Below are positions 9,651 through 64,000 of a DNA stretch of 64,000 bases, piece after piece (position 1 is the first letter of the stretch; each line of letters opens with the position of its first letter). Origin of the DNA: Capitulum mitella. Its lineage: Eukaryota; Arthropoda; Thecostraca; Pollicipedomorpha; Pollicipedidae. The notes beneath the pieces are model-generated. The model was not told the DNA's origin and searched no databases. It saw only the letters and a program-made list of their open reading frames with translations. The stretch is from contig CP099842.1 in the NCBI GenBank assembly GCA_030062745.1, forward strand, positions 26,011,822 to 26,075,821. The letters are read 5' to 3'. The translations under genes were made by a program, and so were the position numbers.

Positions 9651-9654
9651 CAGG

Positions 9655-28500: not shown

Positions 28501-28980
28501 GTGGAAATCAGTGCCAGTTCCAGCCCGTGCCAGTAACAAGACGAGTGTGCCTGGACATAAACAGCGGAACGTTTTAGAGTAGAGGAAGCAATTTCCTCTA
28601 CCTGTTCATTTTAATGCAGTGCTATAACCCCAAGGTTTAATTTTCCAAATTACTACGGGGCAGCTGCTCTACCGCTAAGCAGCTCCGCATCCGTTTCTCT
28701 TCCTTGCCTTCCACAACCCTCGATGATGATCTAAGCTGTACACTTTCTCTACAGTCGTCTTACATCCACATCTCGCAGCAACGTCAGTTGCCTGTGCGCA
28801 GCGACACGCTGGAACATCGGAACGGGAAGTCCGTCGCCGATACGAGGAGCCGCGCAATTTCGTTGAAGCTTGCGATGCCTCGGAAGTCAGTGAGTCATGC
28901 AACACTTGGTCAGCGCTGTTCTCGGCTCGGGCCGCTATCGCTTGGACCTTCCGCCAGCAAACTGCGCAAGCTATTCCTCC
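25600..28980. other. Non-coding stretch, may hold introns of the 25.4-kb gene
   Basis: No exon can be assigned with confidence. A minus-strand ATG frame at 26496-26732 (start MEKMNSEQNEDKSALKRQ) is weakly protein-like. GC-rich pieces occur near 27.0, 27.4 and 27.9 kb. Phrases such as GGGGCTGCGCCCC (26.84 kb) and GGGCAGTTGCCCCC (27.94 kb) look like decayed transposon ends. Confidence 0.3.
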
Positions 28981-29101
28981 CGCCGACACCGCGCCTGCTC
29001 GTCAGTTCGTCTGCGGCCGCCGTTTGGACAGCGCGCCACGTGCCCGCTCCGCTAGCCGTGATCGCTGCCAGACTGTGACCAGAGAGAGATCGTTCGGGAT
29101 C

Positions 29102-31327
29102 ATGTGGTGCACCGCGATTGTCGCGGCGACGCTCGTGGCGCTCTGTCACGGCCAGACTTCGCCGCTGCTGAAGCCGTCCGACGGCGAGCTGCTTCATCTG
29201 AGCAACTTCGGCGCCGATATTCCGGACCCCAGCCGGCTGCACGTGCGGGACGCCGCCGGCCTCTATCTGGCCAACCACTCGTCTTCGGCGCGCCAGTGGC
29301 GGCACGAGCAGCGGGGTCACCTCCTGCTGACGTACGAGCCGCAGTCGGCCGGGCCGGCTGAGCGGCGCCGCTGGCTCGTGCGGGACCTGGAGCGCAACGA
29401 GACGCTGGCCGAGCTGCCGGCGGCCGGCGCGGCGCCCTGGCGCCAGCACGCGGCCAGGTGGAAAGTGGCGGACTGCGCCGGCCGCCCGGCCGCCAGTGCC
29501 GCCCGGCTTTGGCCGGTGGAGCGCCGCCGCCGCCAGAGCGAATGCTCGACGCTGACCTGGCGGCTGGTCGGGTTGAGCGGCCGGCACCGGCAGCTGGCGC
29601 CGCTGGCCGGCCGGTACCGCGTCTCCCAGCAGTACCGCGCCGGCGCGCCCGTGTACCGCTCCGACGCCGGCGCCGAGTTGTCGCGTGTCGTGGACGGCGC
29701 GCGCTCCGGCTGGGTGCTCCGCTCGGCCGGCGGCGGCCCGCCGGAGCTCGGCGTGCTGGACGAGTTCGCCGACCGCGTCAACTGGATCCGCACGGAGCGG
29801 CTGGTGGCCGCCAACCTGCCCGGCAGCGAGTTCCGGGACCGGCTGACGTTCCTGTTCGAGCCGGCCGGCTGGGCGGCCGGCGACGCCGACTTCCAGCTGG
29901 CTGACCTGGACGGCTACAGCGCCGTCTCGACCCGGCCGGACCGCTTCCCGTGGATGCACGAAACGCTCGCCGAGGCCGACCGCGACTTGCACCGGCTGGC
30001 GTACGGCGCCGCGCCGCCGGAGGGCGCCCGCGCGCTGGTCTTCCTCTTCAACTCGACGGCGGTGCGCGGCGCCGCGGTGGAGGCGCGGCTCGACTCGCCG
30101 CCCGTGCGGCTGGCCGGCGACGGCTGCGCGCTGCTGCGCCTGCAGAACCAGGGCCTCCGGCTGACGGTTTCGCTGCGCGGAGACGACGGCGGCGACACGG
30201 AGCTGCTCAGTCGCACCTCGATCAGCAGCTGGAGGGACGTGGTGGTGCCGCTGCCCGGCTCCGGACGGCTGCGGCTGCGCGCCGACCGGCCCACCGTCAC
30301 CAACGCCCGGCTCGTGCTCAGCCAGGTGCTGGTCTTCAACGAAACCTGCGACCGGCTGCAGGGGCGCACGACCGCCTGCGCCGCCGACAGCTGCCTGAAC
30401 GGCGGCAGCTGCGCCAGCGTCACGCTCAAGCACCATCTCTGCTTCTGCCGACCGGGTTTCAGCGGCGAACGGTGCGAGCGCCGCGTGCAGTGCGGCCCGC
30501 CCCCGGATGTCGGCGGAGGCGAGCTGACGCACCAGTCTGGCCGTTTCTACCTGGACCGCGCCTACTACGAGTGCAAGCCCGGCTACCGGCTCGCCGAAAC
30601 CACCTTCGGCTTGGCATGGGCCACGTGCCACCACGACGGCACGTGGGTGAACGCGCCGCGCTGCGAGAGGGACGGGCAAGTGGGCTTCTTCCGGCCGTAC
30701 ATCACGTGCCGTTTCGAGGCGTCGTGCGACGGCTTCAACACCGACGTTGACAATGACTACAACGTGGAAACGGACGTCGCCTGGCGCAGGGACAACAGGA
30801 TGAAAACGTCCAAGTACAAGGGCTACTTCCTGACCGTGTACAAGCCGGAAGGTCCCGGCCTGAAGACGGCCCGCCTGCGCACCCCGTGCGTCGGCCTGCG
30901 TCAGCCCGGCTGCCTGCGGCTCGACTACTTTCTGACCAACGCCACGCTGAAAGTGCTGTCCGGACGATCGGGGCTGCCGGTGTACGAGTCCACGTCCACT
31001 AGCGTGGAGAGGGTGTGGGGCGGCCCGGTGTCAGCGCTGATCCCGCTGGCGCCGCAGAGCGGGCCTGTCGAGGTCGAGGTCCGCCTCTCCCGGAACGAGT
31101 CGGAGGCGGCCGTAGACACGCTCCGGGTGTACCGGCAGCAGTGCAGCCAGCTGGCCGACCAGGAGGAGGATCCGGACCCGGTCCCGTCGCCGACTTGGGG
31201 CCCGGGCCAGCCGCCCACGGAGGGGCCGGCTCCGGGCGAGGACGTGACGACTCCGTCCGGCGCGGCCGCTGTAGTGGCCGGGCGCGTGCTGTTGGGTCTG
31301 GTGCTGGTGGGAGCTCTTTTTCAATGA
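29102..31327 (+). CDS. Secreted or surface-anchored EGF-sushi-MAM protein, intronless
   Basis: The protein has 741 residues. I chose the ATG at 29102 because it opens directly with a signal peptide (MWCTAIVAATLVALCHG); the frame is open further upstream but without an ATG. Residues 20-420 are a large Arg/Ala-rich ectodomain with no clear match; its last part (about 325-420) resembles a degenerate MAM/jelly-roll fold. Residues 426-458 form an EGF-like domain (six Cys, SCLNGGSC and CFCRPGFSGERC). Residues 464-521 form a sushi/CCP domain (CGPPP, YYECKPGYRL, GTWVNAPRC). Residues 536-681 form a MAM-like domain (CRFEASCDGFNTD, GYFLTVYKPEGPGLKTARL). A Pro-rich stalk and a hydrophobic end with no cytoplasmic tail (AAAVVAGRVLLGLVLVGALFQ) suggest a GPI-anchor signal. 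Its role is probably adhesion or matrix binding, by inference. A TCAGTT initiator-like motif lies near 29002. Confidence 0.72.
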   Translation: MWCTAIVAATLVALCHGQTSPLLKPSDGELLHLSNFGADIPDPSRLHVRDAAGLYLANHSSSARQWRHEQRGHLLLTYEPQSAGPAERRRWLVRDLERNETLAELPAAGAAPWRQHAARWKVADCAGRPAASAARLWPVERRRRQSECSTLTWRLVGLSGRHRQLAPLAGRYRVSQQYRAGAPVYRSDAGAELSRVVDGARSGWVLRSAGGGPPELGVLDEFADRVNWIRTERLVAANLPGSEFRDRLTFLFEPAGWAAGDADFQLADLDGYSAVSTRPDRFPWMHETLAEADRDLHRLAYGAAPPEGARALVFLFNSTAVRGAAVEARLDSPPVRLAGDGCALLRLQNQGLRLTVSLRGDDGGDTELLSRTSISSWRDVVVPLPGSGRLRLRADRPTVTNARLVLSQVLVFNETCDRLQGRTTACAADSCLNGGSCASVTLKHHLCFCRPGFSGERCERRVQCGPPPDVGGGELTHQSGRFYLDRAYYECKPGYRLAETTFGLAWATCHHDGTWVNAPRCERDGQVGFFRPYITCRFEASCDGFNTDVDNDYNVETDVAWRRDNRMKTSKYKGYFLTVYKPEGPGLKTARLRTPCVGLRQPGCLRLDYFLTNATLKVLSGRSGLPVYESTSTSVERVWGGPVSALIPLAPQSGPVEVEVRLSRNESEAAVDTLRVYRQQCSQLADQEEDPDPVPSPTWGPGQPPTEGPAPGEDVTTPSGAAAVVAGRVLLGLVLVGALFQ

Positions 31328-33230
31328 ATGGAGCAACACACTGCTGACCTGAGAGCATGGGAGACTTTTGATTGCTTTGTGATGCATTGTTATATGGTTG
31401 AATGAAAGTGGTTTTACCACGTTTGTTTGCTTTTTAGTGGCCTGAGAACAGCCCGGTCACAAGACGATACAGTAGGACATGTCTGTTATTCACATTAGGT
31501 GTTACATATGATTAACTGTAGTGTGTGCATCCTTCCAACCTCGAAATACATGAACTTTTATTAACACCGACGTTTGTGCCAGGCTTTGAAATATCTTTTC
31601 CTGGAAACGATGAAATCGCGCGAATGGGGGATACAGAAGTCATATCTGTACGGAATCTGCCACAAGGCTTTCATTGATCGAGGGACATGGGAGGCCCAAC
31701 TTCCCCGTTTGTGCAAGCTATAGGATTACGATGGCGGGTGTACTGAACGATGGAATTAACAATGAATTTTCCAAAAACGACATTAGGTCGCATCACGGTT
31801 TTTAGTTCAAAATGAAACGTAAGGATGGAAAAAAGAAAATAAGTAGATTGCAACGCACCTGTTCCGTAAGTTTATGAAATTCCAATAGGAATCTATATAC
31901 CCTATAAATATGCATATATATATGTACACATATATATGTCTATATATATATTTGTTATATATAACATGTATACAAGTTATTTATGTAGCATAATACATAT
32001 ATATATACATATGCATACATTTTATAGAATTTCCTTGACATGGTAATCTGCGCTGAACGTCTGCTTTTGCGGCACCACGTGCAGTCCGTGAGGCCCGGAG
32101 AATTCACTGCCCCCCCCCCCCCTCCTCTCAGACCTTCACCTCCTAGGACCTCCTCTCAAGGCGGCAAGATGGTATTTCCGCCCTGCCTTTCGCCCATACA
32201 CGGTGGTTTCAGGTGGTTGAGGGCATAAGTGTAGGAACGGGTGGGGCGGGGTGGGGCGGGGGGCATGGCCCCCACTTTTGGGAAATTTAACATCATTGCC
32301 ATGGGGAAAAACGTCTCTGTCCTCCCCCCCACACTTTTTGGATGTTCCTTCAGTCCTGGTTGAGGGTTGCGTGAGCTCGAAAACAGACTCGTCACGCCAA
32401 ATCAGATGCTCTTGATGTCATCCCTGCCCCAGTTCATCAGTTTCTTGCACAGCTCCACCCTCGCCTTCAGCTGTTCCCACTCAGTTTTGGCAGTGAGGCC
32501 CTCCTGTATGCGGTGTCCTAGTGAGTGCCGCATGTATCGGTATAGTCGTGGTGGGCACCTTGTAGTCGTTGCGAATTTTCACAACTTCGCAATCGTCACC
32601 CATTAAACTGAGAAAGCACGTGACTTGGTTATTTCCATGACCTCAGTGTATTGTCGGAGCTCTAGGACCAAATGTGCAGGCGTAGGGTGACAAAAGAACT
32701 TTTGAAGCACATTGTACGCATTGAAATTTAAGAACAATTTAAACGACCATTACGCGTTTTAATTTCAATTAATTGTGCACCGTCAAGCAATCCTGTGAGC
32801 ACCATGTATGCTAATGGAGTACTCGTACTGCGTACAGTTGTTGAGGTTGATTGGTTGGTTTTCGTTAAGGCGCACAACCATTTGGGCTGCGTTCGGTGTC
32901 CAATCTACACCATGCGTGTCACCAGTAGAGAGCAAAGTGCGTCGAGCTTTGAATTCACAACGTTGCTATCATGCGTTCGAATCTAATCATTACGTAAACG
33001 AGGACATAACTGTTGAGGAAAAGCCTCGGCTACGGGCCTGACGTCACTTTCAGTTTGGCACTTCCCAGAGATGTTGCTTACCAGAAAATTAGCAAGCCTT
33101 ATCTGGAACGAAAAATACAAAAATCTCCTTAGAAAAAAAGCTTTTAGGGGCTTATTGTCATCCTAAGATAAACTGACTTAGTTCGTAAGAGCAAGCATGC
33201 AAATTTTATGTTTCTCATATATTTACTTTT
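31328..33230. other. Intergenic, with AT-rich microsatellite and G/C-run fragments
   Basis: Holds a TATA-type low-complexity block (about 31,905-32,010), a C-run near 32.11 kb and G-rich sequence near 32.24 kb resembling decayed transposon ends. I see no gene. Confidence 0.4.
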
Positions 33231-33315
33231 GCGCATGCGCACAAGCTGCTTCCGCTGGAGACGGACGCCATTTTGAGTGGGACCGGCGACTTTCTGTTCC
33301 GTGTAGTCGGCGTAC
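33231..33315 (+). promoter_or_regulatory. Core promoter and non-coding first exon of the SR gene
   Basis: GCGCATGCGC (33231-33240) is a perfect consensus site for NRF1, the activator of many housekeeping genes. It is followed by ACGCCATTTTGAG (YY1-like) and a short GC-richer stretch ending at a splice donor, GTAC|GTGAGC (GT at 33316). The next acceptor on this strand that leads into coding sequence is the CTTACAG before the SR start codon at 36133. I infer a transcription start near 33.25-33.29 kb and a 2.8-kb 5' UTR intron. Confidence 0.5.
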
Positions 33316-35384
33316 GTGAGCATTTGCGTTAGCGGTTGAGCTACCTGCCGAAAAACTATCCATCGCTCATTGGTATGTGTGTTAGGGTTTTGATATTTGT
33401 ATAAAATGAAATGTGTGTTCCAACCATAAGTTATCGCGCACCTTAAACTGCACTGTGAAGTCGGAATTCCGGTTCTGGCACAAGGGTTCTTTGTTCCTTT
33501 GCGGGGAAATTTTGTGTTCATATACGTGGGTAGTTTTGCAGTAGTATACATGGGATACTTTCAGCATGCTTCATGAAGTCGTGACAAGGAAGTTGATAGT
33601 GTCATCCTTTTGTTTCATGTGTTGGGATCATGTTGTTCTCTCCCAGAGTAATTCTGTTTGTTTGGCATGTTGTTCTGCATATCTCTGTCAGGAAATGTTG
33701 CCAACAGAAGATTTGATAAGTTTTGCTTAACATTCTGTGTTTGATTCAAATGTTCCCAGGTTAGGTTTAAGGAAAGTATTAAAATCATGTGTCATATTTC
33801 ATGATGGTAAGTGTGATAACCTTAGTTCACCTTATTCTGCCATGTGCCCAGAATTTTTGAAAGCAAGGGCCTTGCTAATTGGATGCTTATGGAGCAGACT
33901 GCCCACCGAATGTGTAGACACGAAAATCAGATAAGAATGTTTCTGTTTCGAGGCAGACAGACAGAGGTGAATTGTCCATTATTTGAGCATACTATTATGC
34001 CAACATGCAAAGTATGGTAATCTTGATAAGGTTTGGTCCTGTGCACAGGTCTAAACAATTTGTGCAGATGTCCATGGTTGTCATTGACATGAAGTGGGAG
34101 GTAGTGCAGATGTTATTATCACTGCAGACTCCAGACTGTGGTGTAGACTGTCCGCCAAATGTATGGACACAAAAATCAGAACAAGTGGGGAAATGGAAGA
34201 AAACATATTTTCAGCAATCATGGACAGCAGAGTGATGTCTTAATGTCTTAATGTGATAGTCTTAATGTGACTAAGATGTGCTAGGTTTATCTGCTGTCTC
34301 CTAGGGCATGCCTGTGGCTAGTCAGGGCATAGTGTGTATCTTGGCATGTGTGTCAGCTGTTATCTAGCAATAGCAGGACTAGCTGCAATCCATTGCTGTG
34401 CAAACTGCACAGAAACATTATTTTGCTCATATGGAATGAGGTGATAGGGCTTGGGTGGGGTATGTGTAAACATGTCTGTGTTACAAGATGTTCATTACAA
34501 AAAGGTCATTATTACTGAGGCATTTACTTTGGGAGATGTTGAAATGATAAGGTTCAGCATAATTCTTGGTTGCATCCCATAAAGGGAGATCATGCACACA
34601 AGTTTCCCTCACCTGAGCATTTTGCACTTACTGGTGTACTCACAGGTTCCTGTTGGTATGCATTGTCAGGAACTGTGCCACACTGTCATAGTGACTGTTA
34701 TGATTGTTTCCTAATGCAAAAATGGTAAAGGTGTCCTAAGAAAAGAAAGAAAATGGTAAAAGGGACATAAAAAATTGTTTCAGATAAGTCTTGTCCATTG
34801 CCCTGTTTCTTCTCTACAAGTCTAGTGTGTAGTAACTTGTGGACTTCCTCAGATATGGCAGTGGAGAGATGCAGAGTTTGTTATTACCAGCATCAGAATC
34901 CTGTGCACAAAACATAAACCAGGCATGCTTCTGAGATTAAGTAACTGTGCCAAGCCAGGGGACACTGTTCAAGCTCCAGCTATGACCCAAATGGCATTCA
35001 TTCCCCTCTGCATCTGCATAGTTTGCAAAACAATGCTTAATGTGCCTGATCTTGTGTAGGTCTAGGCAGTGTGCCATGGGGTTTCAGTTAACCTAACTTC
35101 ACCCAGTTTCACTTTTCAGTATAAGGACCTGGCTGTACCTGCTGGACTGACAAGAGATTTTTCTCTAATTAGTGCACGTGCTTGAATTGATAGAAAAATC
35201 CCTTAACCTAGGTATTTTTCTCATACATCATTGCTGTCATATCTTGGTGCATCCATCAGAGCTGAATGGTGGACACCACAGCAAAACTCCCAGTTTTCTG
35301 TTCTCAAAATTTAAACTTAATGTAGGTTTGGAATGACATAGGAAGCTGCAAGTACCAGTGAGATATTAATATTGAGGCTAGTAG

Positions 35385-35386
<2 letters not shown>

Positions 35387-35430
<44 letters not shown>
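35387..35430. repeat. (AT)22 microsatellite
   Basis: An uninterrupted AT tract in the 5' UTR intron of the SR gene. Confidence 0.9.
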
Positions 35431-35433
<3 letters not shown>

Positions 35434-36132
35434 ATGGCTTGCATAGCACAGAAATTGGTGTTGGAAACCAAGTTGGTTTAGCTTAGCCCATATCTGGCAA
35501 GCTGTATGAAAGAAACCAGTTGTTTTTTTTTTTAAATATTGCATGATGCTAGTGAAGAGTGATACAACTGAGAATTTTCATTTTAGGTTCTTGAGATTGA
35601 TTTTTAGTAGCCTGGAAACATTGTGCCTCACAGACACAGCTTTTTCACACAAAGCACTACTAATGGAAAGAAGAATTTTCATTCGCATCAGTAAGTGGTG
35701 ATGCACCACCAAATCACCATACATATCCAGATGAAATCATGACAGTGAAGCCAGAATTCAGTGGCAGTCCCCACCTTACTGTTCTTTAGCCATGTGTCCA
35801 TGATCAGTAGTTGTTTGTGATGTGTGCAGAATGGCTAGTTGTGATCTTATTCCCTGTTGTTTACCTTTTGAAGAAAACATTGTTAGGGATGAGAAAGAGA
35901 AATATATCATTAACCCTTGTATAACTGTGTAGTTGTCTACCCATGGTGAGTCATGTTAAAGTGGAGATCACTGTGATGAATTTTCCCTGAATGAGGACAA
36001 TATTCCCATGTTTTTTTTATGTTTCAGTTAATGACATGGATTTTGACCTCTGCATTGTCTGACCGAGGAAGTAGTCTGCTATTCATGATCAGAAATGTCA
36101 TTTGTCTTTTTTCCACCTTACAGACTTTTGTC

Positions 36133-39100
36133 ATGGCTACTCGCAACTGGAATCTGGAATGTAAGGTGTATGTTGGCAATCTGGGCAACAGCGCAGCCAA
36201 AAATGAAATTGAAGCATGCTTCAGTAAATATGGCAACCTGCGAAATGTCTGGATTGCCCGCAACCCACCAGGCTTTGCCTTTGTGGAATTTGAAGACCCA
36301 CGTGATGCAGAGGATGCCTGTCGTGGTTTGGATGGAACGTAAGTATGGGCATATGGTGGATGGGAATGTTGCAAAAATCATGCATTTACATATTTTGAGA
36401 CCAGTGCAAATTGAAGATTTGTTCAGTTTGACCTTTTGAGGGCTCAAGTTTGTTGTAATTGCTGAAAATGTCCATGCAAATGCTAGCATTGATTCAAAGC
36501 AGCATTGTAGTGCATTTGCCAATTTCAACAAACATTTTGAATATTCTACCACACCTCTTATCAGTCTTTTTCTTTTGTTGATGAAGTTGTTGCACTACAG
36601 CAGTTATTCATTTTCTTGTTCTGGTGCATTAATGGCTGATTAACTATGTTTGAACATGACAATCAGGTTCTCTCATTGCAGCACTGCTTGGTGCTAGATT
36701 AGGTGTTATTCTATCCTTGTTCTGGCATTGTTCATATATTGAGGTGTTGGGGTGTACAAAAAAGCTCATGCAACAGTGCAATTCTGGCCCATTAATGCTG
36801 TGCATTGTGATGTTCCTCCACATTCTTGGGCCCTTGTGGGCGAATTTCATCACCTAGTGCTCAGTTGCCACCATTCCTTGTAGTAAACCTGTTGTGCACA
36901 TTTTAAAGCAGGGTCATATGGTATTATATGATGGTTGACCAATGCTTTGCTTCCAGACGGATGTGCGGTGAACGGGTCCGTGTTGAGATGTCGTCGGGAA
37001 AGAGCCGTAACCGAGGCGGCGGTATGAGCGGCCGTGGTGGCGGTGCCCCGTACCGGAGCAGGTCAGTGAACCCGTGCCCCGTGGGCCGGGGTCGGCCGGT
37101 CTTTTGCAATACTCTGAGAGTTGTGCTGTTGCCTGCGGTTGTTGGATAAGGTAATGCAGGGTGTTCAGTTGCACAGCCGAAGCTCGGGAACGGGCGCGGA
37201 TTGGAGTGTTGATCTGCACTCGGATTTGTGCGGCCCTGCATTACCCTAACGTGCTGCTGCCCGTATTACAGATCTGCAATCGCCACTCAATCATCCCTTG
37301 TCTCCGTCCAACACCCATCGCCTTCTGTGTTGGTCACGTGAGGTCCAGGTCAGCCCTGGCCCGATCTGATCCGACCCATCGTGGGACTTGCGGCTCACCC
37401 CCATCTTGCATCTCACACTTCGCTGCATCGCCTCGTCGCGTCGCCTCATCGCGTCCTGTCGTTGATTGCTCGTTACACTCCGCGTTGGCTACGTACTTGC
37501 TTCTTGGGTCACGCCTCGGCTCCACTTCGCTTCGCTCCCTCCGATTAAAGCTGAAGCAAGTAAGTATGAGTTCAGTCAGTCAGGCCCGTACCACCCAGCT
37601 GAAAACGACATGGATGTTTTTGGTTCGCCAAGCATATGAAGCTCATTGGTCTGTTAGATCGTCTAACGAATATCTGATATATGCGGTGCACGTCCAGTGG
37701 CCGTCTCGTCTAATAATCGTCACTACCTGCAGGGGAATTCGTGTGGCAGTCAGTCACGTGGAATGGAGTGTAGCACATTTCCAGTGGCAGTTGATTTTAT
37801 GAAGCTTGCTCCTGAACTGTAATGGTCTAATGGTCCTGCAGATTTTCAGGGGCCCGGTCTGCACTATTGATTACATAGCGACCTGTCGTGAGTTACGTGC
37901 ATTCTGGACTGGCGTTTGTAAGGTGATCCACGTGTGTGGCGGTACTGGCGGACGTGAGTGGGGGCGGGTGCTGACGGCGTGGCGTCTGCGCAGGTCGCCG
38001 GGCCGCCGTTCGCCCTCGCCGCGGCGCCGTTCCCGCAGCCGCAGCCCGCGCGCCTCGCCCGTCTACAGCAGATACAGAAGGTGAGAGTGCCGCTGGCGCG
38101 CAGGCCGGACGCCGTACCGTAGCGCGACGCTCTCGGGACGCTGCTGCTTTGCATGCTGGTTTGCGGACGCTTGGCTGCCACACTGAGGGGTCGTGGTTGT
38201 GTGGGAAGTCGCATAAATAAGTTTTTTGTCGTGCGTTTAATGGGATGTGTGTTTTGGTCTGCTTGCGGCGCAGCAGCAGCGAAACGTTGGTTGACAGTAT
38301 GGCGAATTGTTTGATGGCCAGTTTTGGTGGCAGTGCTGATTTAGGTCAAACGGTAGGCTTGTTCCCGTCTTTACCCTCGCTCCAGTGACTGTCCCCCATT
38401 CGGGTCGTTGATGCACTGCTGTTGGCCCCAGATCTGGCAGCCGGGACTAAGACACCGGCCAGCTGCATCGTCGGGGGAATGCCCGTTCCTTGATCCTCTC
38501 CCATTGTCCAGTGCGCGGCGCCGCGTCCCCTGGGCTCCCGCCTTGCCCCATCCTCCGCCGGCCGGTGCGTCGTCCGCCCGTCAGGTGTCGGCCGTGGAGT
38601 GTGCGGGACAGGCTGGTCCCCTGATCCCCTGCGCGTGTCGCCGGCGCCGTGCCTCTTGATGGCACCGAACTGCGCTCCGTCACCGCACCGCGATGAGCTC
38701 TGTTCATCTTACGCATCGGCGCTCAGCCTCTCGGCATTTCCCGGATCTTGAAGCTTAGTGACGCGCTGGACTGCATGTTGCGGACTTTGGTTGTCGCGAA
38801 TTTTGGCCTGTCATTCGGTACGTAGTTCACCGGCCGGTCTGGCGCCAATAAAATCGTTCGTCCATTGGTGTGTTTCCGTGTGAGTTAAATGAACCGAGTT
38901 TGCCAGTTGAATCGTGACAGTTTGTGTAGGATGCGTTGTTCTCAAGTATGGACGGGTTTTTAGAAAGAGAAATTAGGTTACAGTGCGACCACCACTAAGT
39001 GTTCGGTTGGTTGAGGTCCGGTCTTGAATGTCACTGCTGACATGGTAAAACAGCGGGTCGTAGGTCAGAACGTGCATGACGCTCTTCGCGCATCCAGCTT

Positions 39101-40849
39101 ATGTTCTGCTACCTGTGTTCTATCTCCGTATGCGCGGAGATGGTTCGCATGGTGGAGGTAGTCTCCCGTCCGCTCTGATCTCGATTGTCAGTGGACATTC
39201 CTACATTGGAGTTCCCAATGCTGGTCCTGCCTCCATCTGGGGTAGATGGACGCAGCCTTCTTATCACTGTCCTTTCGAAGCAAGTACTGCCCGCATGCCA
39301 GCAAGGCCTGCATCTCCCAGAGACGGATGCGGCGACACGGCGGCAGCACGTGGGTCGGGAGGCGGCTGGGAAGGATGTCTGTCTGCATGGTTGCCGGGCG
39401 CGTTTGTCTGTTCTCGCGGCACTGAAAGGCGGTCGTTCATGACGCGGGGCATTTACAATGTTGCCATCGATCAATATTTTCACAGATCGGAAACCATGAG
39501 TTAATCGTAGAGCTGCCTGGAGCCTATTACAAGCGCTGTCAAAAAGCTGTTGGCACTAACTCGCACTGCCTAGACGGGTTATTCGGCAGTGGTCTGTAGG
39601 CAATTTTACGGGACCAAGTAACGATAAGCATTGCTAGAAGCACATCGGTAGCTTCGTAGGAAACAGTGCATGTCTTCCGGCAATATGTGGTCGATCGACA
39701 AAAACCTCCTCCCTGTAGGATCATTGAGGAGGCGTTGTGCGATGGGAATGGTGTACGTAAAGCTTGATGTCACGGACATGGCAAAGACCAGCGAGAACGA
39801 ACGTGCCGTTCATCACGCTCCCCGGCCATTAGGTCTCCGAGCACCCTAGCGTTCCGTGGCGCTGCCCGTGTTGCATGTTGCATGGGGCACCGGCTGCTGC
39901 CGAGTGACGCCCGTGTGTCTGCTCTCTGCGCAGGTCTCGCAGCCGCAGCCGCAGCCCGCGTGCCTCGCCCGTCTACAACAGCTACCGCAGGTCAGTGGCG
40001 CCGCAGCTCGGCCGGCGCTCCGGGCCAGTCATGGCTGCTGTAAACGATGACGTAGTCATTGATAGGTGGTCTCCTCAGTTTGTTCGGCTCACGATGTATA
40101 ATAAGCTTGTAAAATGGTCCTTTACGGGCGTCGATGCTGGTTTTTGCGAATGGGATACGGTGTGAAAGAATGGTGCAGGGTAATTCTTGAACCCGGAATT
40201 TTTCGAGGTTTAGTCATGGAATGTCGTCATAAAAGTGTTGGAAGCACGGGAAGTGCGAACCTGCCCCCCCCCCCCCGCATCCCCACCTCGCGCACGAATC
40301 TGCGGCGTTACATCGGCCTGTCACCGCTGGAGTTGGGTCTGGAGACTGACTGGAGGGGCGGGGGTTGGCAGGTCTCAGCCCAGCTGTTCTGTTCTTCGCA
40401 GCCGTCATTGATAGGCTTGCGGTCGAACTCATCCGAGGTCTCGTCAGACCACGAATGGAGTACTGATGAAAGTTCCTAAACCTCTCAATAGACTCATTGG
40501 AAGGGATAAAAGGTTTCCGAGGATCTGGGTGGCTCGGGCGGTCGGTGGACCGGCCCCGTCTCGGGGAAATATTAATGTGCGATCTTCGTTACGTGGACGT
40601 GTTGCATCCTTGCGGTCTGTTGGCCAAGTTGTCGCCCTGTTATTTATCTTGCCGTTGTGCTCAGGAAGTGAGTTGTGTTCGGTGTCATTACGAAATTAAT
40701 ATGAAGAACAGGTTACATTCGTAGTCATGACATTGCAATGCATAATGATGCTTTTGTGAGTGGCCACCTAATCAGTGCGTAACGCTGTAGTGAACAGGTT
40801 ATTTAGAAGCATACGTGTACGCTGTTGCAGGTCTCGCAGCCGCAGCTAG
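36133..40849 (+). CDS. SR splicing factor, SRSF3/Rbp1 type
   Basis: Five coding exons: 36133-36338, 36957-37061, 37994-38080, 39934-39990 and 40831-40849 (TAG), 157 residues. All junctions are GT-AG and all coding introns are phase 2. Residues 10-80 form one RRM with RNP2 VYVGNL (12-17) and RNP1 GFAFVEFE (47-54), very close to SRSF3. A Gly-rich linker ([15 protein letters not shown]) follows, then an RS tail. No zinc knuckle is seen, which argues against SRSF7. The family binds exonic enhancers and recruits U1 and U2 snRNPs in the nucleus; tail phosphorylation controls its activity. Exons 3 and 4 both end in [13 protein letters not shown]-x-x-YRR and look like a tandem duplication. Reading through the exon 3 donor gives a stop two codons later and a 133-residue form. 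The ATG is 9 nt after a CTTACAG acceptor. Confidence 0.9.
38081..38870 (+). other. Alternative 3' UTR of a short SR isoform
   Basis: If the exon 3 donor (GTGAGA at 38081) is not used, translation stops at TGA 38082-38084. An AATAAA follows at 38847-38852 with a GT-rich element (TTGGTGTGTTTCCGTGTGAG) just after it. This is a complete set of signals for intronic polyadenylation. Confidence 0.5.
38847..38852 (+). terminator. Intronic poly(A) signal in the SR gene
   Basis: AATAAA followed within 15-30 nt by GT-rich sequence. It lies between exons 3 and 4, so it would end the 133-residue isoform. Confidence 0.55.
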
Positions 40850-42106: not shown

Positions 42107-45100
42107 CTACTTCCAGCGGCCGGTTATGGCGTTGAGCCGCTGGGAGGCGGGCGAGGCGGCGTCCATCTTGAGCACCCAGGCCCAGCGGGAGCTCACCAGG
42201 CTCAAGTCGGGGAACTTCACCTGCAGATGCTGACCGTCCTTCGTCCACTAAAACAACGGCGGCGTCGGTGTGAGCTCGACCCGAGACCTGGCTTTCCACC
42301 ACCAGTCATATTTCGTAACCTAACCCTTGATATTAGAAACATTTTCCAAGTAACTTGTCCTGGATACGGTTCCATTCCCATCTGCGTTACTCGGTGGAAG
42401 TAGCAAGAAAGCCGCAATGTTTTAACGGGTAGGCCAAGGTCGGACTGACCGTTAACGACCCTGCCATTGACACGACGTTCCTCAATGGCAGGGCCGTATC
42501 CAGGAATGAGCTCTGTGCCAGTGGTCACCTTGAGCGGATCCTTGTGGCCCAGCATGAAGACCTTGCCGTCCGGGGCCAGCTCCACGGACCCGAGGCGCAG
42601 AATGTCCTGCTCGGGCCAGTCGAGCACGATGGCGTACACGCTCCCCTCGCGCTGGGTGAACCACACGCCGCTGGTGGCGCTGTCGTTCTGGTGGTGCCAC
42701 GGCTTCGAGCTGCGGACAGGACGCGCGGCGGCGTGACACGGCGGGCGATGCGACTTGAAAAAGGGGAAATACACGACATTAAAAACTGCGACATTCAAAA
42801 GAAAATGCAAGACTTGACACCGACAAATGAGTCGCAAGCAGAAAAAAATGCCGTGTCACCAGAGGAGTTCGGGCAGCTCTGTACTGTTGCTGAGACCTGG
42901 TCTGTTGGATGTCTTTCGTGATCATTATCGGGCTGGTCGGTCTCCCTGTTTACCCTGGGCAAACGCAATAAACTGCGCCAGTCTAACGCAGCCCGCGGGC
43001 GCCTGAGCAGCCCCGACAAGCCTGGAGCGGCGTTGGCGAGCCTGATGATGTCAGGCTATCAGGCCAACGACACCGTGCTATTTGTGGGCAAATATGAGCA
43101 CGCGTGAGTGTCACCTTGTCCCGTTTGACGGACGAGCGGCCTGTCCCGGATGTGTCTGTTTGGAGCCAGACGCAACAATGCGGTTGAAGGCCTACTTCTT
43201 GGCACCGAAATGACTCCAAATGACATTCAGTAGTGGAGCAAAAGCATGCCATTTATAAAACTCGGTTGTATCATGTGCGCACTAGGAAACGTAAATTGGA
43301 ATGCTGGCTCCAATGCTGCGTCTCGCCAGTTTAACTTCTGTACGTCCTGTCGGATCCCTCAAGCTGTCCCCTGACTAGGCACTGGACGGGTTCATAGCAC
43401 CAAGCCCAGCCCCGTTCCGTGTACTGCGCCACTCGCCTGTAGATGGCCTCGCCGTTGATGTCGAGCCAGTGGCCCATCTGGCGGAGGCGCTCCTCGAAGA
43501 TGGGCACAATGCGGCCGTCGTGCGTCGGCCCCACGTTCATCAGCAGGTTGCCGCCGCAGCTAACGGTCTCCGCCAGCTCCTGCGGGCCGGAGGTACCAGG
43601 TCAGGCGGCAGGAATGTCAAGCGACCGCCTGCCCTCGCAGCTCCTGCTCGGGGCCATTGTGTGGGATTGAACGCAGGATATTTCCCGTTCAGTTCACATG
43701 CATATATGTTGAGACTAGCCATAGGCATCGTCCGCAGGGCTGATAGTCACCTCTGCCAGGAGTGAATTAGATTTCTGTTTTACTAGCGGGACAGCTGGAT
43801 CATCAACAGCGAGCGTCATATTACCGAGATATCGGCTTCCTGTTATCACAATGACTAGCAATTGGTGCAGTACTAAGACAACTTGAAGTAGAGCATCCGA
43901 TCTGGCTCACGCTGCGTACTTTCCTTGCCCGTACAGGGCCGGAGAGAGCGGCTACCCACCTTGGTAAGGTCGTCCATTGTGAGGAAGTCGGCGAGCACGG
44001 CCTCGCGCCTGTAGCCCCACGACTTCTTGTCGATGGTCATGCAGTTCTCCCACTTGTGCGGCAGCAGCACGCCCGGGTTGTAGCGGTCCCGGCAGGTGTA
44101 GAAGTCGCCGTGGGCGCAGCTGGCGTCGGGCCCCCAGCGGTCGTTCGTGACCACCGTATCCCTGATGGTGCGGGAGGCCGGGACTGAGGCGCGCCGCTCG
44201 GCGGTCACGGTTGGTACAGTGGCGCCGCCTTACGCCAAGGAAATGCAACACGAGCCGCGACAGTGTAGTCAATGTATAGACTGAGCTACGGGACGGAGAT
44301 CCTCGGGACTCTGCACAGGAAGAATCCAGCAACTTTTCCTGCTACTCCTCGTGCAATTAATCGGCGAGCTGGGTAAACTAAGGCACACTCATAGGAACCA
44401 AGAGGGAAATAACGCGCATTCATGAAACAGGGCTCATGGGAAAACGTACCAAGATTACCTGCCTCTGACAAAAACCAATCCCGGCTTCCCCTCGTTATGG
44501 GCGCAAAATGACCTCAGTAGTCGGCGCGCCCGAAAACACCCATAAACAACAACAATCGCGTCTCTCCGATATCACAGCAGGCGATGGAGGAGGCAGCCGA
44601 CGACCCCGGGACGCCTCAACACGCCCCAGCTCACCAGAGGGCGTCTCACCTGACGGGCGAGTCGTTGTACAGCCAGGCGATGAACTCCTTGCTGCCCCAG
44701 TAGTCGGAACTAGGCGCAGCTATGCTGCCGTCCGACCAGACCACGTCCGGCCGGTAGTTGTTCACCTGTGAGAGGACGGGGACATATTGGGGTGACAGGC
44801 CGCCACAGTGGACCAGAAGTACACGGCTGCCATCAACGTGACGTGGCTGCATCTGGGCAACGATCTGTGCTGGACCATTGAACTTTGCCTCTTGCGAAGG
44901 CTGATGCCGTGGGTCGGCTAGCCCAGCGGGACTTCGAGGCGGTCATCTGCCGACAGTGGCTGGGCTCTAAGTCAGTTTTGTCCGAGTAATGGGCGAACAT
45001 TGATCGGATGTAATCGAGTGGCAGTCGCAGAAGCTACAGAGTGACAACCTTGTGCACGGTTAGACGTCCTAAGCTGAGTAAGCAGTAAAGCGAAGTCAGA

Positions 45101-45465
45101 TCCGGCTTCGTATACGTACGGAAAAAATGAGGGTATAAATCACCAATTTCCTAAATAAAGATGTTGCAATAGCTACTAATCATGCATTGGAATACAATGC
45201 AAATGTGTATGCCCTTTATTAGGCAAAACAGTACGGTAATGAACATGACATACCAACTCGTATAGTTCAGGAATGGTCTTGGCGTGCGGAAATATCTTCC
45301 TTGTAAAATTTGACTTCTTGTCCTCGAGAAAGAGAGGGTTGAACCATTCGAAGAGTGAATGATAGACGCCGAATTTGATGTCCGTGTTTTTCTTGATCGA
45401 TTTAGCCAGGTCTCCTGCGGACGATACCCAAAAGAACAGCTTTAGTGCCGCGTGAGCGAAGATAA

Positions 45466-45520
<55 letters not shown>

Positions 45521-46844
45521 AAGCGGCTAAATGACGAAACTGCGAAGCACCGCATACAAAAATAAAAATGTTTTAAGTTTGCATCATAACATGTACCTTT
45601 CTAAGATCCCAATTATATTGGCCATAAGAAAAGTGGGCATCTTAATCTGAACACAAATTACTACACTATGGCAAGATGACTATCATAACGTTTCCTTCCA
45701 TTAATAGCTGTAACTGTACAAATTGCGTCGATTCTGAAGGTCCCAATTTTTGGTACCTGTTTTGTGCCCGGTCTGGATTACAGCAGACACGCTGGAATAA
45801 TTTGACGTCATCGTATATCCACAATATTCCAGCGTCATAAGCCCACCGAACTCACCCAGCAGATCCCGTTTGGGTCCCACGTCCATGGCGTTCCAGTTCC
45901 AGGCGTATTTCGATGGCCACATGGTGAACCCTTCGTGATGTTTGCTCGTAAGCACTATGTACCTGGGCAATAGAACTGTGTTGTCAGTTTCTGAGTCGTA
46001 TGCGAAAAAGCCAACATTTTTGTACGCCGCCGCAAACAACAGAAGAATCTACGAACCGTCGTTGTAGTGACAGCGTATTAAACCAGGACTTGTTTGTCTT
46101 GCACATGCACTCAACGACCAAGAGATTTAGTTGCGCATTTAGCATTACCGTGCCGTGCATTACCACACCGATTAAGCGCATCAAACTATTGTGTGAGCAC
46201 AAACTGTCGTTTATCTTGTAAAGGCACGTAGCTATTACTAGCGTTTGCAGTGAACGTCCCATCGATGCAATAAACTGTTTTCTGGGGCGATAAAATAAGT
46301 CATACCAATATCCTGAAAACGATATTCAGAGCCTCGATTTCTCGTCCGACGAGCATCATAGCCTGAGGTACCTTAGGCCCCGACGGAGACAGTTCAAGGA
46401 CACATACACGATACTGAGGATGTCGACGTTCGACTGATGGCGAGATGTAGTTCGGCAATCTAAATTGTTGACAATTGTCTTGTGGCTGGTGCATCGACAG
46501 CACTAGTAAACGTCATCGAATATACGCTAGCTTGCGCAACGTGCGTTGAAGGGCTGCCTTGCAGCGAGAAAAATGCTGGCAGTCTTGGTATCATGTTTAT
46601 CTGTTCGACTTCTCTTGCCTGTACATGCGTGTGCCTTGAGGAGGCAGGAGCGTACCGCAACAATGGTAACGAACAATCTGCCACCAATGCGGTAAGCGTT
46701 CATTGTTGTTCCGACTGTTACGACTACACGTAATACTAAATATAATCTTTGTGGTCAGGACTAGGAATAGGATTTCCTTCCTATTATTATTATATATTAG
46801 TTATATATATATATTATTATATATTATTACCCCCCCTCCCAAGG

Positions 46845-46922
<78 letters not shown>

Positions 46923-58654: not shown

Positions 58655-58662
58655 GTTTCAGG

Positions 58663-60300: not shown

Positions 60301-60820
60301 CTCTCATTCAGACCACGGGCCTCTCTTCATAGCACGCAAAACCTTAATATATATTCGGAGTACGTTTTCTTTAGGTTTGTAAGCCTTCTTTAATGTTTAG
60401 AATATTCTTATTTTGCTTTAATTGTCTGTTTCGAACAGCATAAGACTTCCTGCGGGCGCTTCACGCTATCCAAAGAACTGGGACCTTCGGCCTCAGGGGG
60501 GCCGGCTCGGCTGCCAGGGGCCCCACTTTTCCTCCAGGGGAGCCATGGACCCTTTGGCCCCCCTTTGATTATGTCATTGACCGTGTCTGGCTATTCCTGC
60601 ATGGTAAAGGTAAATATTAAACGGGAGTACGACTTTTAAATCAATGAAAGAGGAAATCAAGACCTCTGGTTAGTTCTTCCTAACCATTCCCGTACACAGC
60701 TTTTTAGATGTATCGAAAATTTAGGGAAATTGTTACTCGCGGAATCTCATTTAAGTTCCACTTTTGCTTCACAGTACATCATGTGCTGTTGCTCACAAAG
60801 CTCTTCGACCAATAGTCCTG
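60300..60820. other. Non-coding stretch
   Basis: Flank between the minisatellite and the promoter region at 60.9 kb, with no gene visible. Confidence 0.4.
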
Positions 60821-60849: not shown

Positions 60850-61069
60850 TGAGATTTGCGGTGAGTTCGGCACCAACGCGTCGTTGTTGCATTTGGTTTG
60901 TGTCCTTCCGGCTGAGACGCGTGCATAGCGCTGACTCGCCATATGCGATTCTTGTGCAGTGTGTAGTTCGTGCGGACACCGTTTGTGGGTTGTTACGGTT
61001 CCCATAGTTGTCCGTACAGCATCTGTATTTCCTCGTGTTTTGGCCTCAAGTTGCTGAATATTGTCTGAG
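60850..61069 (+). promoter_or_regulatory. Promoter and 5' UTR region of the 61.07-kb gene
   Basis: This CpG-containing block lies just ahead of the start codon at 61070 and contrasts with the nearly CpG-free sequence after it. No TATA box was found. The exact start site is not determined. Confidence 0.35.
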
Positions 61070-61135
61070 ATGGCTGTTGGTACTGCAGAACCCAACCAGC
61101 TTTTAGCATTTATCAAGATTGAACTGACTGATCAG
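61070..61135 (+). CDS. First coding exon of an unidentified gene running off the right edge
   Basis: ATG in a good context (GAGATGG) opens 22 codons, starting MAVGTAEPNQLLAF and ending IELTDQ, before a donor (CAG|GTTGGT) in phase 0. The frame is below usual length cut-offs. Three things support it: the block just upstream looks like a promoter, the sequence is smooth and protein-like, and the next 2.9 kb is CpG-depleted, T-rich intron-like DNA just like the first intron of the SR gene. I do not recognise the protein. Downstream exons were not found up to position 64000, so they probably lie beyond the window. Confidence 0.45.
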
Positions 61136-61484
61136 GTTGGTTTTCAGAACTAAAATTGTGTGGATGCATCATTTCTTCAACATTTTAATGTTAATGTGTG
61201 CTAAGTTGAAATGGATGTCATATTAAAACTCCAAGGTTAAACTGTACTTACTGGTTGGGGTTTAAAAAATCACAATGAATCAATCTTTGTGGCAGATCAT
61301 GGTACTAGGTACAAGGAAAGCATTTATTATTGTAATAATCAGTTATCTCTGTGGTTGCCATGTACACCTGTGTTTTTATGTGTTGTATGTGCTCCGAAAT
61401 GTGGCATTTATTGATGCATGGAACTTATTGAAAAATGGCTATGGAGGAATTTTCTCCAAAACCTTTCCACCAGGGAAAAGTTTT

Positions 61485-62077
61485 GGTAATCCTTACCGAT
61501 CGCACACCATGCGCAGAGTCGAGGGTAAGGTTAACGCGCGAGTGTAGTTTCCGATTTCGCCACCAGGGTGATATTCGTTCTTTTTCTCGCCGCTAGGAAG
61601 AGTACGTAAAAATACTGACATTCGCTAGGATGGTTCCGCTCAAGAACCGATGGTATGATAACCAATAGTTCCATTCGGCTGATTCGAACGCCAGTTGATA
61701 GCGCCGAACGTTTCGTTTCTGTGACTTACACACTTTTACTTTTGACCCGCTGATGACGTCACAGGTGAGGTCAATCACGAAAAAAGGACCACTTTCTCCA
61801 GAATTGCCGAACCACGATGGAAAGCAGATGAATTCGTTCAGACCTAACCTAACCTAACCTAACCTAACCTAACGAATATTACCTTGGTGGCGAAATCGGA
61901 AACTACACTCGCGCGTTCTTGAGCGGAACCATCCTAGCGAATGTCAGTATTTTTACGTACTCTTCCTAGCGGCGAGAAAAAGAACGAATATCACCCTGGT
62001 GGCGAAATCGGAAACTACACTCGCGCGTTAACCTTACCCTCGACTCTGCGCATGGTGTGCGATCGGTAAGGATTACC
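61485..62077. mobile_element. Foldback transposon with 162-bp inverted arms
   Basis: The arms 61485-61646 and 61916-62077 are inverted copies that I read as identical over 162 bp, starting GGTAATCCTTACCGATC. An 8-bp direct repeat, AAAGTTTT, abuts both outer ends (61477-61484 and 62078-62085) and is the likely target duplication. The 269-bp centre holds six CCTAA units and, next to the right arm, an extra 43-bp copy (61873-61915) of an internal arm segment (61985-62027). No transposase is encoded. CpG density is far higher than in the surrounding intron. Confidence 0.82.
61843..61872 (-). repeat. Interstitial arthropod-type telomere repeat (TTAGG)6
   Basis: Six perfect CCTAA units, TTAGG on the minus strand, inside the centre of the foldback element. 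A CCTAG/CCTAA-type degenerate stretch recurs at 62.28-62.33 kb. Confidence 0.9.
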
Positions 62078-62115
62078 AAAGTTTTTGCTACCAACAGAAC
62101 CATCTTGTCCTCGGA

Positions 62116-64000
62116 ACAATTTTACATATTGTGTGAGCATGCCCAATTTGCAAACTGTCCACCAAAATATCAGCTGTGATGAAGTCTAGCTTGTGCTCAA
62201 TACTCTACCTTGCACATCAACAGAAGATAATACTTATTGCATTTCTTCTGAAGTTTTAGGCAATATACTTTGTGTTATCTAACCTGACCTAGCCTAGCCT
62301 AGCCTAGCCTAACCAAACCCAACTTAACATGGCCTGAAATGCCTAACATAATCCTATCTATCTTTGCTTATGTGACTGACTTTCAATCCCACTGTTTTAA
62401 TTACTACTTTTATATTTTGTTATTTTTGTAACTTCTCATGGTACTTTTCCATTTCTCCAAAAAAATACATTGGAATGGCCAGGATGAATGAAATTGTGTT
62501 ATTGAAGCTAGTAGGAACATGTGCTGGAAAGGAGATGAAAGGTATGTGGAGTTTATTGTGAATTGAAATTGCAACTGGCAATGAATAATGTGGCAAGATT
62601 AACTTCCATTACTGACAGCTTGATTAGGTTTTGGCTAACTGCACTGCTTGGCTGGAAAATGTATGCATGACATTTTATAATACTGTGACCAGATTTGCAA
62701 TTTTGGGTAGAAAATGACACCTAAGCTTGAAAATAGATACATCCAACTGTGGAAATATTACATCTGAACAACATTGTGGCAGCAAATTGCATGCACCCAA
62801 ATTCTTTGTATTACAGCTTTGTGATGCAGGATTCATGCATAATGCATGAATCATGCATGAATTCATGTATAATGCACCATTCCCTCTGGGATTTTGACAT
62901 CCTTCAGCACTTTTTGCATCTGTATGCATAATCAGTAATAAATTTTGAAACATTGCAGCTGTTGATGACCTTTATTTTTGCTGTTGTGATTAGAAATCTT
63001 CTGATTTTTTTCTACATCTTGACATTCATTGCAAAATGAATTTAGCCATGCTGTTTTATATATTTATCTTGAGGCCAAGAGTAATGAAAATCAAGTTGGT
63101 AGTGCATTGCCATTAGGCAAAAGCAATCTGCCAGTGATATTGAAAGCTTTGGTGCAGGGTTGGAAATTTGGTTTTGGTTCCTGGTGTTGAAGTCAGAATC
63201 TTTGTTTTGAAGCACAACATTTTGCAGAGTAATACCAATTCAGGCTGGCACTCTTGATGTCAGTCAGGTATAACATCACACCTGCTTCTGTACTGAATGA
63301 AGACATTAATTGTGTAAATTTGTTTTCAGAGTTAAAAAACTGGTTATCATGGTTAGAACATAGCTTTTTGATTGAGGCACAAGAGTAAATTTCTGGAGTA
63401 TGAATTGTTTCTTTGGGGGAACATATTTCATGGTGTTCTTCAACACCAAAAAAAACAACACGTTTTCCAACCATGATCTGGTTACATCATCAAGTCTGCA
63501 AACCATGTTGCAGGGATCAGTGACATGCTGGAGTAGAATTCATGAATCTAATTGTCCCCATAAAGTAGTTTCTTGCCATACTTAGGCCATTATATTTTGT
63601 GATCCATTTAAGATGGATTAACCTTTGCCACTGTAGTTTCAGTCTTAAGAAGGAAACATGATGCATTTGAGATAAATGGGACACTGTTTCTGTTTGTTGG
63701 ACAGTGTTTATTTTAAAAAAAATATTATGTTTGTGTGTGTCTCTGTCCAACCCAAGATACCCTGAGTTACCCCAATTTCAGTAGTTTGCTCCAATGTTCT
63801 TTTAGCTTCCCCAAAACTGGTCTCTAGCTAGGCTTGTAACCAGTTCAGAATCAAATCAGAATCATTTCTGATTCACTGACTGCTCTTGTGAATCAGAATG
63901 TGGTTTGATACCATTTTTGATTGTTATGAATTGGAATCAGAATCAGAGTCACTTTGGTTCAGGGGTCAGAACCAGACTTATTGGCAGAGTCATTTGGAAT
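62116..64000 (+). other. CpG-free intron-like sequence to the window edge
   Basis: T-rich sequence with many TG and CA dinucleotides. I find no CpG between about 62,116 and 63,459. No exon was identified, and it is read as intron 1 of the gene starting at 61070. Confidence 0.45.

What the first reader, a model, noticed from the sequence alone, without database searches (positions are those of the whole stretch)
33600..36950. CpG-depleted 5' gene body of the SR gene
From about 34,160 to 35,165 I find no CpG at all, and only scattered ones across 33.6-36.9 kb, while TG and CA are abundant. The promoter (33.23-33.32 kb) and the exons from 36,957 on have normal CpG. This is what long-term germline methylation of the 5' part of a housekeeping gene body leaves behind (methyl-C deaminates to T). 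Such patterning is known for methylated gene bodies in invertebrates; here it is visible as one bounded domain.
Basis: partly seen in the sequence, partly recalled or inferred. Interest (0 to 1): 0.72.

Follow-up and report, generated by a model that had tools for sequence, protein, structure and literature searches.

The report
Methylation scar in 5' gene segment
The first 3.4 kb of a splicing-factor gene, in what looks like a barnacle genome, has lost nearly all its CG pairs in the way long-term germline DNA methylation would erase them, and the same sharp scar marks the start of several other basic genes there.

Summary
Observation confirmed. No CpG lies between 34,153 and 35,177; segmentation bounds the depleted domain at 33,581-36,957 (o/e 0.11; window 0.97). 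It covers intron 1, exon 2 and intron 2 of an SRSF3-type gene; the promoter and exon 3 onward are normal.

The methylation-decay reading is well supported, indirectly. TG and CA excesses are equal and roughly balance the missing CpG. In three in-domain exons synonymous C before G is almost gone (1 C : 29 T) and NCG codons are absent, while 7 of 8 arginine codons stay CGN; this argues against composition or base-calling artefact. A 611-bp foldback insertion inside a second domain (eIF3m, 61,035-64,940) is CpG-rich (o/e 1.5), so depletion reflects age.

It is not unique: 6.9% of 150 kb sampled lies in such domains. They mark 5' parts of DNMT2 and 3 of 6 proteasome loci examined; 0 of 4 other gene regions in the window have one. 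The genome has DNMT1, DNMT2 and a DNMT3-type ADD exon. Probably a barnacle; my searches found no barnacle methylome.

Twist: introns are depleted at least as strongly as exons, and later exons often are not, unlike the exon-biased methylation reported in most arthropods. 5mC itself was not measured.

The parts
33201..33580 (+). CpG-normal promoter and inferred 5' UTR exon of the SRSF3-like gene; contains GCGCATGCGC at 33231 (NRF1-like palindrome, name recalled)
   Evidence: o/e 1.15, 21 CpG; motif position. Transcription start inferred, not measured.
33581..36957 (.). CpG-depleted domain 1
   Evidence: o/e 0.11, 15 CpG, TG 1.51, CA 1.65
36133..36338 (+). coding part of exon 2 (RRM), inside the domain; CpG kept in arginine codons
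   Evidence: 6 CpG, 5 of them in arginine codons; NNY before G 1 C: 15 T; SRSF3 match
36339..36956 (+). intron 2, depleted
   Evidence: o/e 0.04, 1 CpG
36957..37061 (+). exon 3, CpG-normal; 3' edge of the domain
   Evidence: o/e 1.43, 15 CpG
37994..38080 (+). exon 4 (RS-rich), CpG-normal
   Evidence: o/e 1.37; reading frame
39934..39990 (+). exon 5 (RS-rich), CpG-normal
   Evidence: o/e 1.17; reading frame
40831..40849 (+). end of the coding sequence in exon 6
   Evidence: joined frame of 157 codons ends in a stop
61035..64000 (.). CpG-depleted domain 2, continuing to window-equivalent 64,940; 5' part of the eIF3m gene
   Evidence: 3295 bp, o/e 0.03 once the foldback element is left out; without that, only 62,113-64,940 is called
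61070..61135 (+). first coding exon of the eIF3m-like gene, no CpG
   Evidence: 0 CpG; joined with downstream exon pieces matches solved eIF3m at 3.4e-18, the matched stretch beginning at residue 13
61476..62086 (.). foldback (MITE-like) element, CpG-rich, inside domain 2
   Evidence: 172-nt arms 99% complementary; 50 CpG, o/e 1.50

Best explanation
The domain is the mutational footprint of cytosine methylation kept in the germline over a long time on the promoter-proximal segment of a constitutively used gene. Methylated CpG deaminates to TpG (CpA on the other strand), and mainly CpG whose loss would change the protein or a splice site survives. Methylation starts just inside the transcription unit, leaves the CpG promoter alone, runs through intron 1, exon 2 and intron 2, and stops at about the start of exon 3; the GC-rich 3' half has not been methylated long-term. 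Shown: depletion, its symmetry and budget, its pattern at synonymous sites, its edges, its recurrence, the CpG-rich insertion, and genes for the enzymes. Inferred: 5mC itself, germline timing, constitutive expression, and the recruitment step (probably through transcription-linked chromatin marks).
For: Excess TG 0.0243 and CA 0.0246 per base: equal on both strands; present CpG plus excess 0.0515 against 0.0448 expected at background o/e. Exon 2: NNY before G 1 C: 15 T, before other bases 18 C: 8 T (Fisher p 7.6e-5), NCG 0, NCA 6; 1 CpG outside arginine codons against 11.4 in random synonymous recodings; exons 3-6 have 20 against 11.1. Three in-domain exons pooled: 1:29 against 41:17 (p 4e-10), NCG 0: NCA 13, CGN 7: AGR 1; ten exons outside: 76:28 against 172:30, NCG 41: NCA 19. 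CpG-rich foldback element inside domain 2. Domains in 4 of 15 evenly placed 10-kb stretches, 6.9% of 150 kb, at DNMT2 and at 3 of 6 proteasome loci. DNMT1, DNMT2, DNMT3-type ADD exon. Published passages: gene-body methylation in arthropods favours conserved broadly expressed genes (PMC7343188).
Against: No methylation data. Three of six proteasome loci have no called domain, two of them with weak dips only, and 20 kb at DNMT1 have none. eIF3m exons far beyond the domain are partly depleted (o/e 0.67 and 0.35), as is PSMA2 exon 3 (0.53), so the 3' limit is not clean everywhere; exons outside domains show a mild effect of the same sign (p 0.014). The catalytic part of a DNMT3 was not seen. No relative's genome was available, so the direction of change is inferred. 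The sialyltransferase gene with a domain is not an obvious housekeeping gene.
Confidence: 0.88

Rival explanations
1. The gene was methylated along most of its length, and the CpG-normal 3' part only looks unmethylated because it is young, GC-rich or rebuilt by insertions; the 5' limit would then not be a limit of methylation.
For: eIF3m exons beyond its domain are partly depleted (0.67, 0.35) and its long intron 1 holds a retroelement-like open frame, recognised by eye. The DNMT2 domain is split by CpG-normal DNA with a transposase-like frame, by eye.
Against: In the SR gene exons 3-6 are coding sequence of the same protein and carry more synonymous CpG than random recoding (20 against 11.1, p 0.002), and introns 3-5 have o/e 0.95-1.03. 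PSMA1 exons 2 and later have o/e 1.06-1.23.
Confidence: 0.15
2. Sequencing or base-calling artefact: methylated CpG in the sample was misread as TpG/CpA in the assembly, so the DNA still holds the CpG.
For: The same dinucleotide change would appear; the sequencing platform of this assembly is unknown to me.
Against: The loss respects codons: synonymous CpG gone, 7 of 8 arginine codons still CGN, reading frames and protein matches intact. Misreading would not spare arginine codons.
Confidence: 0.03
3. An AT-rich or otherwise constrained regulatory intron in which CpG is low for reasons of composition or selection.
For: The domain is AT-richer than the window (GC 0.40).
Against: o/e corrects for composition; AT-rich stretches with normal CpG exist in the window, such as 45,001-47,000 at GC 0.41, o/e 1.10-1.24. 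The GC deficit is largely what CpG loss predicts: restored GC 0.441 against background 0.457. A CpG-rich insertion is tolerated inside domain 2.
Confidence: 0.03
4. A CpG-specific mutation process without methylation, for instance linked to transcription.
For: The domains lie in the 5' part of genes.
Against: TG and CA excess are equal (0.0243 and 0.0246 per base), with no strand bias, and the rest of the same transcription unit is not affected.
Confidence: 0.04

Closest known systems
Arthropod gene-body methylation (Lewis et al. 2020, PMC7343188; passages read)
   Same: Subset of genes, conserved broadly expressed genes favoured; [quoted passage not shown]
   Different: In most species there methylation is higher at exons; here introns are depleted at least as strongly as exons and the later exons of several genes are CpG-normal. 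Barnacles do not occur in its main text (term count 0).
Nasonia vitripennis methylome (PMC3794928; passages read)
   Same: Low methylation upstream of the coding sequence, rapid rise near the start of the gene.
   Different: There methylation is consistently higher on exons and drops on introns; here the introns of the 5' segment are the most depleted part.
Historical methylation by CpG o/e in the copepod Eurytemora carolleeae (PMC11706791; passages read)
   Different: There the gene distribution is unimodal and low (mean 0.5), DNMT3 was not found, and genes with the highest o/e are enriched for RNA processing; here the background is near 1 with sharp depleted domains, one of them in an RNA-processing gene, and a DNMT3-type ADD exon is present.
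CpG o/e survey of Ecdysozoa (PMC8821070; passages and one section read)
   Same: CpG o/e with DNMT content as the predictor of mosaic methylation.
   Different: Works per coding sequence; the words barnacle, Cirripedia, Thecostraca and Amphibalanus do not occur in its main text.

Membership tests
Gene-body-methylated locus (mosaic invertebrate type) | 5-methylcytosine present at the locus in germline DNA | not testable with these tools
   No read data or methylation calls at hand.
Gene-body-methylated locus (mosaic invertebrate type) | CpG depletion with symmetric TpG and CpA excess inside the gene against a CpG-normal background | tested here: met
   o/e 0.11 against 0.97; excess TG 0.0243, CA 0.0246
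Gene-body-methylated locus (mosaic invertebrate type) | CpG-normal promoter | tested here: met
   33,201-33,580 o/e 1.15
Gene-body-methylated locus (mosaic invertebrate type) | DNMT1 encoded in the genome | tested here: met
   Exons matched by PF00145; best solved relative DNMT1 at 1.1e-57
Gene-body-methylated locus (mosaic invertebrate type) | DNMT3 encoded in the genome (not needed in all methylating arthropods) | tested here: inconclusive
   ADD exon at C11:16375991 over the cut-off and matching DNMT3A at 2.6e-7; catalytic exons not among the 4 matches
Gene-body-methylated locus (mosaic invertebrate type) | Preference for conserved, broadly expressed genes | tested here: inconclusive
   Domains at SRSF3-like, eIF3m, DNMT2 and 3 of 6 proteasome loci; 0 of 4 other gene regions in the window; no expression data, few genes
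Exon-biased gene-body methylation as in most arthropods | Exons more affected than introns | tested here: not met
   Intron 1 o/e 0.07 and intron 2 0.04 against exon 2 0.50, whose kept CpG are mostly arginine codons; exons 3-6 normal
Gene-body methylation along the whole transcription unit | Depletion across most of the gene | tested here: not met
   About 3.4 of about 8 kb of the SR gene, the 5' part only

The most novel reading that the evidence does not exclude
In this lineage methylation is a promoter-anchored, intron-inclusive domain of one to three and a half kilobases whose 3' edge is set at an exon start: of eight domains with a gene assigned, five end within about 70 bp of an exon start or inside that exon (SR, PSMA1, PSMA2, DNMT2, sialyltransferase), a sixth 124 bp before one, and two end inside introns. 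CpG-rich insertions inside the domains would be datable holes that show whether new DNA placed in a methylated domain is methylated de novo.
Probability: 0.3. Interest if true: 0.62.

Novelty: new member of a known kind. Interest (0 to 1): 0.45.

Why it matters
If the reading holds, methylated domains can be drawn from bare sequence with sharp edges in a group for which my paper searches listed no methylome (open-licence papers only). The near-complete loss against a background near 1 gives strong contrast, and CpG-rich insertions inside the domains make a natural test of de novo methylation and of how fast CpG decays. The 5'-limited, intron-inclusive layout differs from the exon-biased pattern reported for most arthropods and so bears on what recruits the methyltransferase.

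Tried and rejected
Dispersed-repeat test: the 86 bases at 33,880-33,965 were searched in the whole genome to compare CpG at homologous copies; the only match was the window itself. A diverged local copy (about 34,137 on) shows CpG against CpA or TpG alternatives at some sites, but two copies cannot tell which state is older.

'DNMT3 lost' was considered after one search showed only DNMT1 and DNMT2 exons; one search then found an ADD exon at C11:16375991 and one search matched it to DNMT3A, so the idea was dropped.

'Fixed domain length of about 3.3 kb' was considered after SR (3377) and eIF3m (3295 without the insertion), and dropped: PSMA2 2181, sphingomyelinase-like 2370, sialyltransferase 1412 bp.

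Not counted as the same kind: L013:1-1033 (GC 0.57, TG 0.99; it is inside the 6.9% figure) and the weak dip at 58-60.5 kb (o/e 0.42-0.69 without TG excess; called a domain in 4 of 12 parameter sets).

A paper search for five terms around first-intron methylation listed nothing.
Full report
OBSERVATION. CpG o/e over the 64-kb window is 0.97. In 34,001-36,000 it is 0.02-0.06, and no CpG lies between positions 34,153 and 35,177. The stretch 33,600-36,950 holds 15 CpG against a mean of 130.9 in 2,000 shuffles (minimum 99), and the longest gap in 200 locally shuffled windows was 285 bp. A two-state segmentation places the domain at 33,581-36,957. Over 12 parameter sets the 5' edge moves by at most 55 bp and the 3' edge does not move; 4 of the 12 also call a stretch from 58,638, which lacks the TG excess; 5 shuffled windows gave no domain.

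GENE. An inferred 5' UTR exon lies near 33.25-33.4 kb. Coding exons read by eye are exon 2 (coding 36,133-36,338), exon 3 (36,957-37,061), exon 4 (37,994-38,080), exon 5 (39,934-39,990) and exon 6 (40,831 to the stop at 40,849). Joined they give one open frame of 157 codons whose best solved relative is SRSF3 (2.8e-40). By segment, o/e is 1.15 (33,201-33,580), 0.07 (intron 1), 0.50 (exon 2), 0.04 (intron 2), 1.43 (exon 3), 0.95 (intron 3), 1.37 (exon 4), 1.03 (intron 4), 1.17 (exon 5), 1.02 (intron 5) and 0.97 (exon 6 and following) (exon 2 was cut there from 36,127, whereas the acceptor in the sequence suggests 36,124). The transcription start is inferred.

MECHANISM TESTS. First, symmetry and budget: relative to 19 kb of the window taken as background, the non-coding domain has an excess of 0.0243 TG and 0.0246 CA per base, and its present CpG plus this excess is 0.0515 against 0.0448 expected. 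Second, codons: in exon 2, pyrimidine-ending codons before G are 1 C: 15 T, before other bases 18 C: 8 T (p 7.6e-5), with NCG 0 and NCA 6; of the six CpG inside the exon five are in arginine codons and a seventh lies across the splice donor. Three in-domain coding exons pooled (SR, eIF3m, sphingomyelinase-like) give 1:29 against 41:17, NCG 0: NCA 13, CGN 7: AGR 1; ten exons outside give 76:28 against 172:30 (p 0.014, a mild effect of the same sign), NCG 41: NCA 19. PSMA2 exon 2, inside a domain, and a DNMT2 exon across a domain edge were looked at afterwards (2 and 5 CpG, o/e 0.37 and 0.43) and are not in the pooled counts. A misreading of bases would not respect codons. Third, age: a 611-bp foldback element with 99% complementary 172-nt arms lies in the eIF3m domain with 50 CpG, o/e 1.50. 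A second inverted-repeat element, seen by eye in PSMA1 intron 1, is also CpG-normal (335 bp, o/e 0.94). That these insertions are young is inferred from the near-identical arms of the first.

NOT ONE DOMAIN BUT MANY. The second domain of the window runs 61,035-64,940 when the foldback element is left out (3295 bp, o/e 0.03); with it in place only 62,113-64,940 is called. Its gene is eIF3m (3.4e-18 against solved eIF3m). In 15 stretches of 10 kb, one at 10 Mb on each contig but C4, 10,312 of 150,000 bases (6.9%) were called depleted, in 4 stretches (L013, L014, L016, L027); 1,033 of these bases (L013:1-1033) are GC-rich without TG excess and probably of another kind. The L013 domain covers an exon of a gene that I take by recall for a neutral sphingomyelinase (Pfam: Exo_endo_phos) and whose later exons are normal; the L016 domain ends at the start codon of a family-29 glycosyltransferase. 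The DNMT2 gene has 1,964 and 997 depleted bases separated by CpG-normal DNA with an open frame that looks like a transposase (by eye). Further called domains have no gene assigned: L027 (3,455 bp), L014/L028 (2,947, 1,977 and 1,456 bp) and upstream of DNMT2 (1,493 and 3,498 bp).

PROTEASOME SAMPLE. A proteasome-family search gave 25 exon matches, by my count at 14 places. I fetched six of them (chosen by me for their 5' or multi-exon matches, not at random). Three have a called domain 5' of CpG-normal exons: PSMA1, PSMA2 and a PSMA3-type gene (proteasome alpha by Pfam; the number is recalled). One (L030) has none and two (L033, L035) have weak dips only. Twenty kb at the DNMT1 gene show none. 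Four other gene regions in the window (EGF-sushi-MAM, fucosidase, an esterase-like frame without a Pfam match, a chemoreceptor) have o/e 0.97-1.17. So domains are frequent in basic cellular genes but not universal, and the contrast rests on few genes.

EDGES. Domain ends against exon starts: SR 36,957 at the exon 3 start; PSMA1 1943 against 1959; PSMA2 2469 against about 2479; DNMT2 9575 inside the exon that holds 9510-9677; sialyltransferase at its start codon (acceptor not fixed); PSMA3-type 124 bp before exon 2; the sphingomyelinase-like domain about 500 bp before the next recognised exon and the eIF3m domain inside a long intron. Coding exons here are often CpG-rich, so a segmentation edge tends to snap to an exon; in SR and PSMA1 the sequence after that exon is also CpG-normal, which argues for a real edge. 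Against a clean 3' limit: eIF3m exons far downstream have o/e 0.67 and 0.35 and PSMA2 exon 3 has 0.53.

ENZYMES AND ORGANISM. The genome (477 Mb, 16 contigs, longest seen 45.5 Mb) carries DNMT1, DNMT2 and a DNMT3-type ADD exon; DNMT3 catalytic exons were not among the four matches. The assembly resembles that of the barnacle Capitulum mitella (463 Mb, 16 chromosomes, longest 45.43 Mb; passages of PMC8416341). This is a likeness, not an identification.

LITERATURE. Passages seen: PMC7343188, PMC8821070 (passages and its arthropod section), PMC3794928, PMC11706791, PMC12576374, PMC8416341; other papers only as search listings. The searches for barnacle or Pollicipes with methylation terms listed no barnacle methylome; the library holds open-licence papers only. 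Gene-body methylation and the CpG loss it leaves are well known. What differs here is the intron-inclusive, 5'-limited layout and the near-total loss against a background near 1.

VERDICT. Direct methylation calls would settle it.

Noticed in passing
53492-54838 (-): Open frame of 449 aa without a stop that matches Pfam 7tm_6 (insect-type odorant receptor, E 3.2e-17) better than 7tm_7 (E 2e-10): odd for a crustacean, if it is one.
   Followed up: partly
61476-62086; L031: Foldback elements sit inside depleted domains and are CpG-normal or CpG-rich; the first carries an ACCTA array.
   Followed up: partly
28730-31324 (+): Open frame of 865 aa with EGF, sushi and MAM-like matches, GC 0.71, CpG-rich.
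   Followed up: no
37994-38080 and 39934-39990: Two successive coding exons of the SRSF3-like gene encode near-identical [11 protein letters not shown] stretches, as from exon duplication.
   Followed up: no
58000-60500: Repetitive-looking stretch with mild CpG deficit (o/e 0.42-0.69) but no TG excess: probably another cause.
   Followed up: partly
L014/L028, L027, L029/L007: Several further depleted domains without an assigned gene, including three in a row separated by CpG-normal stretches.
   Followed up: no
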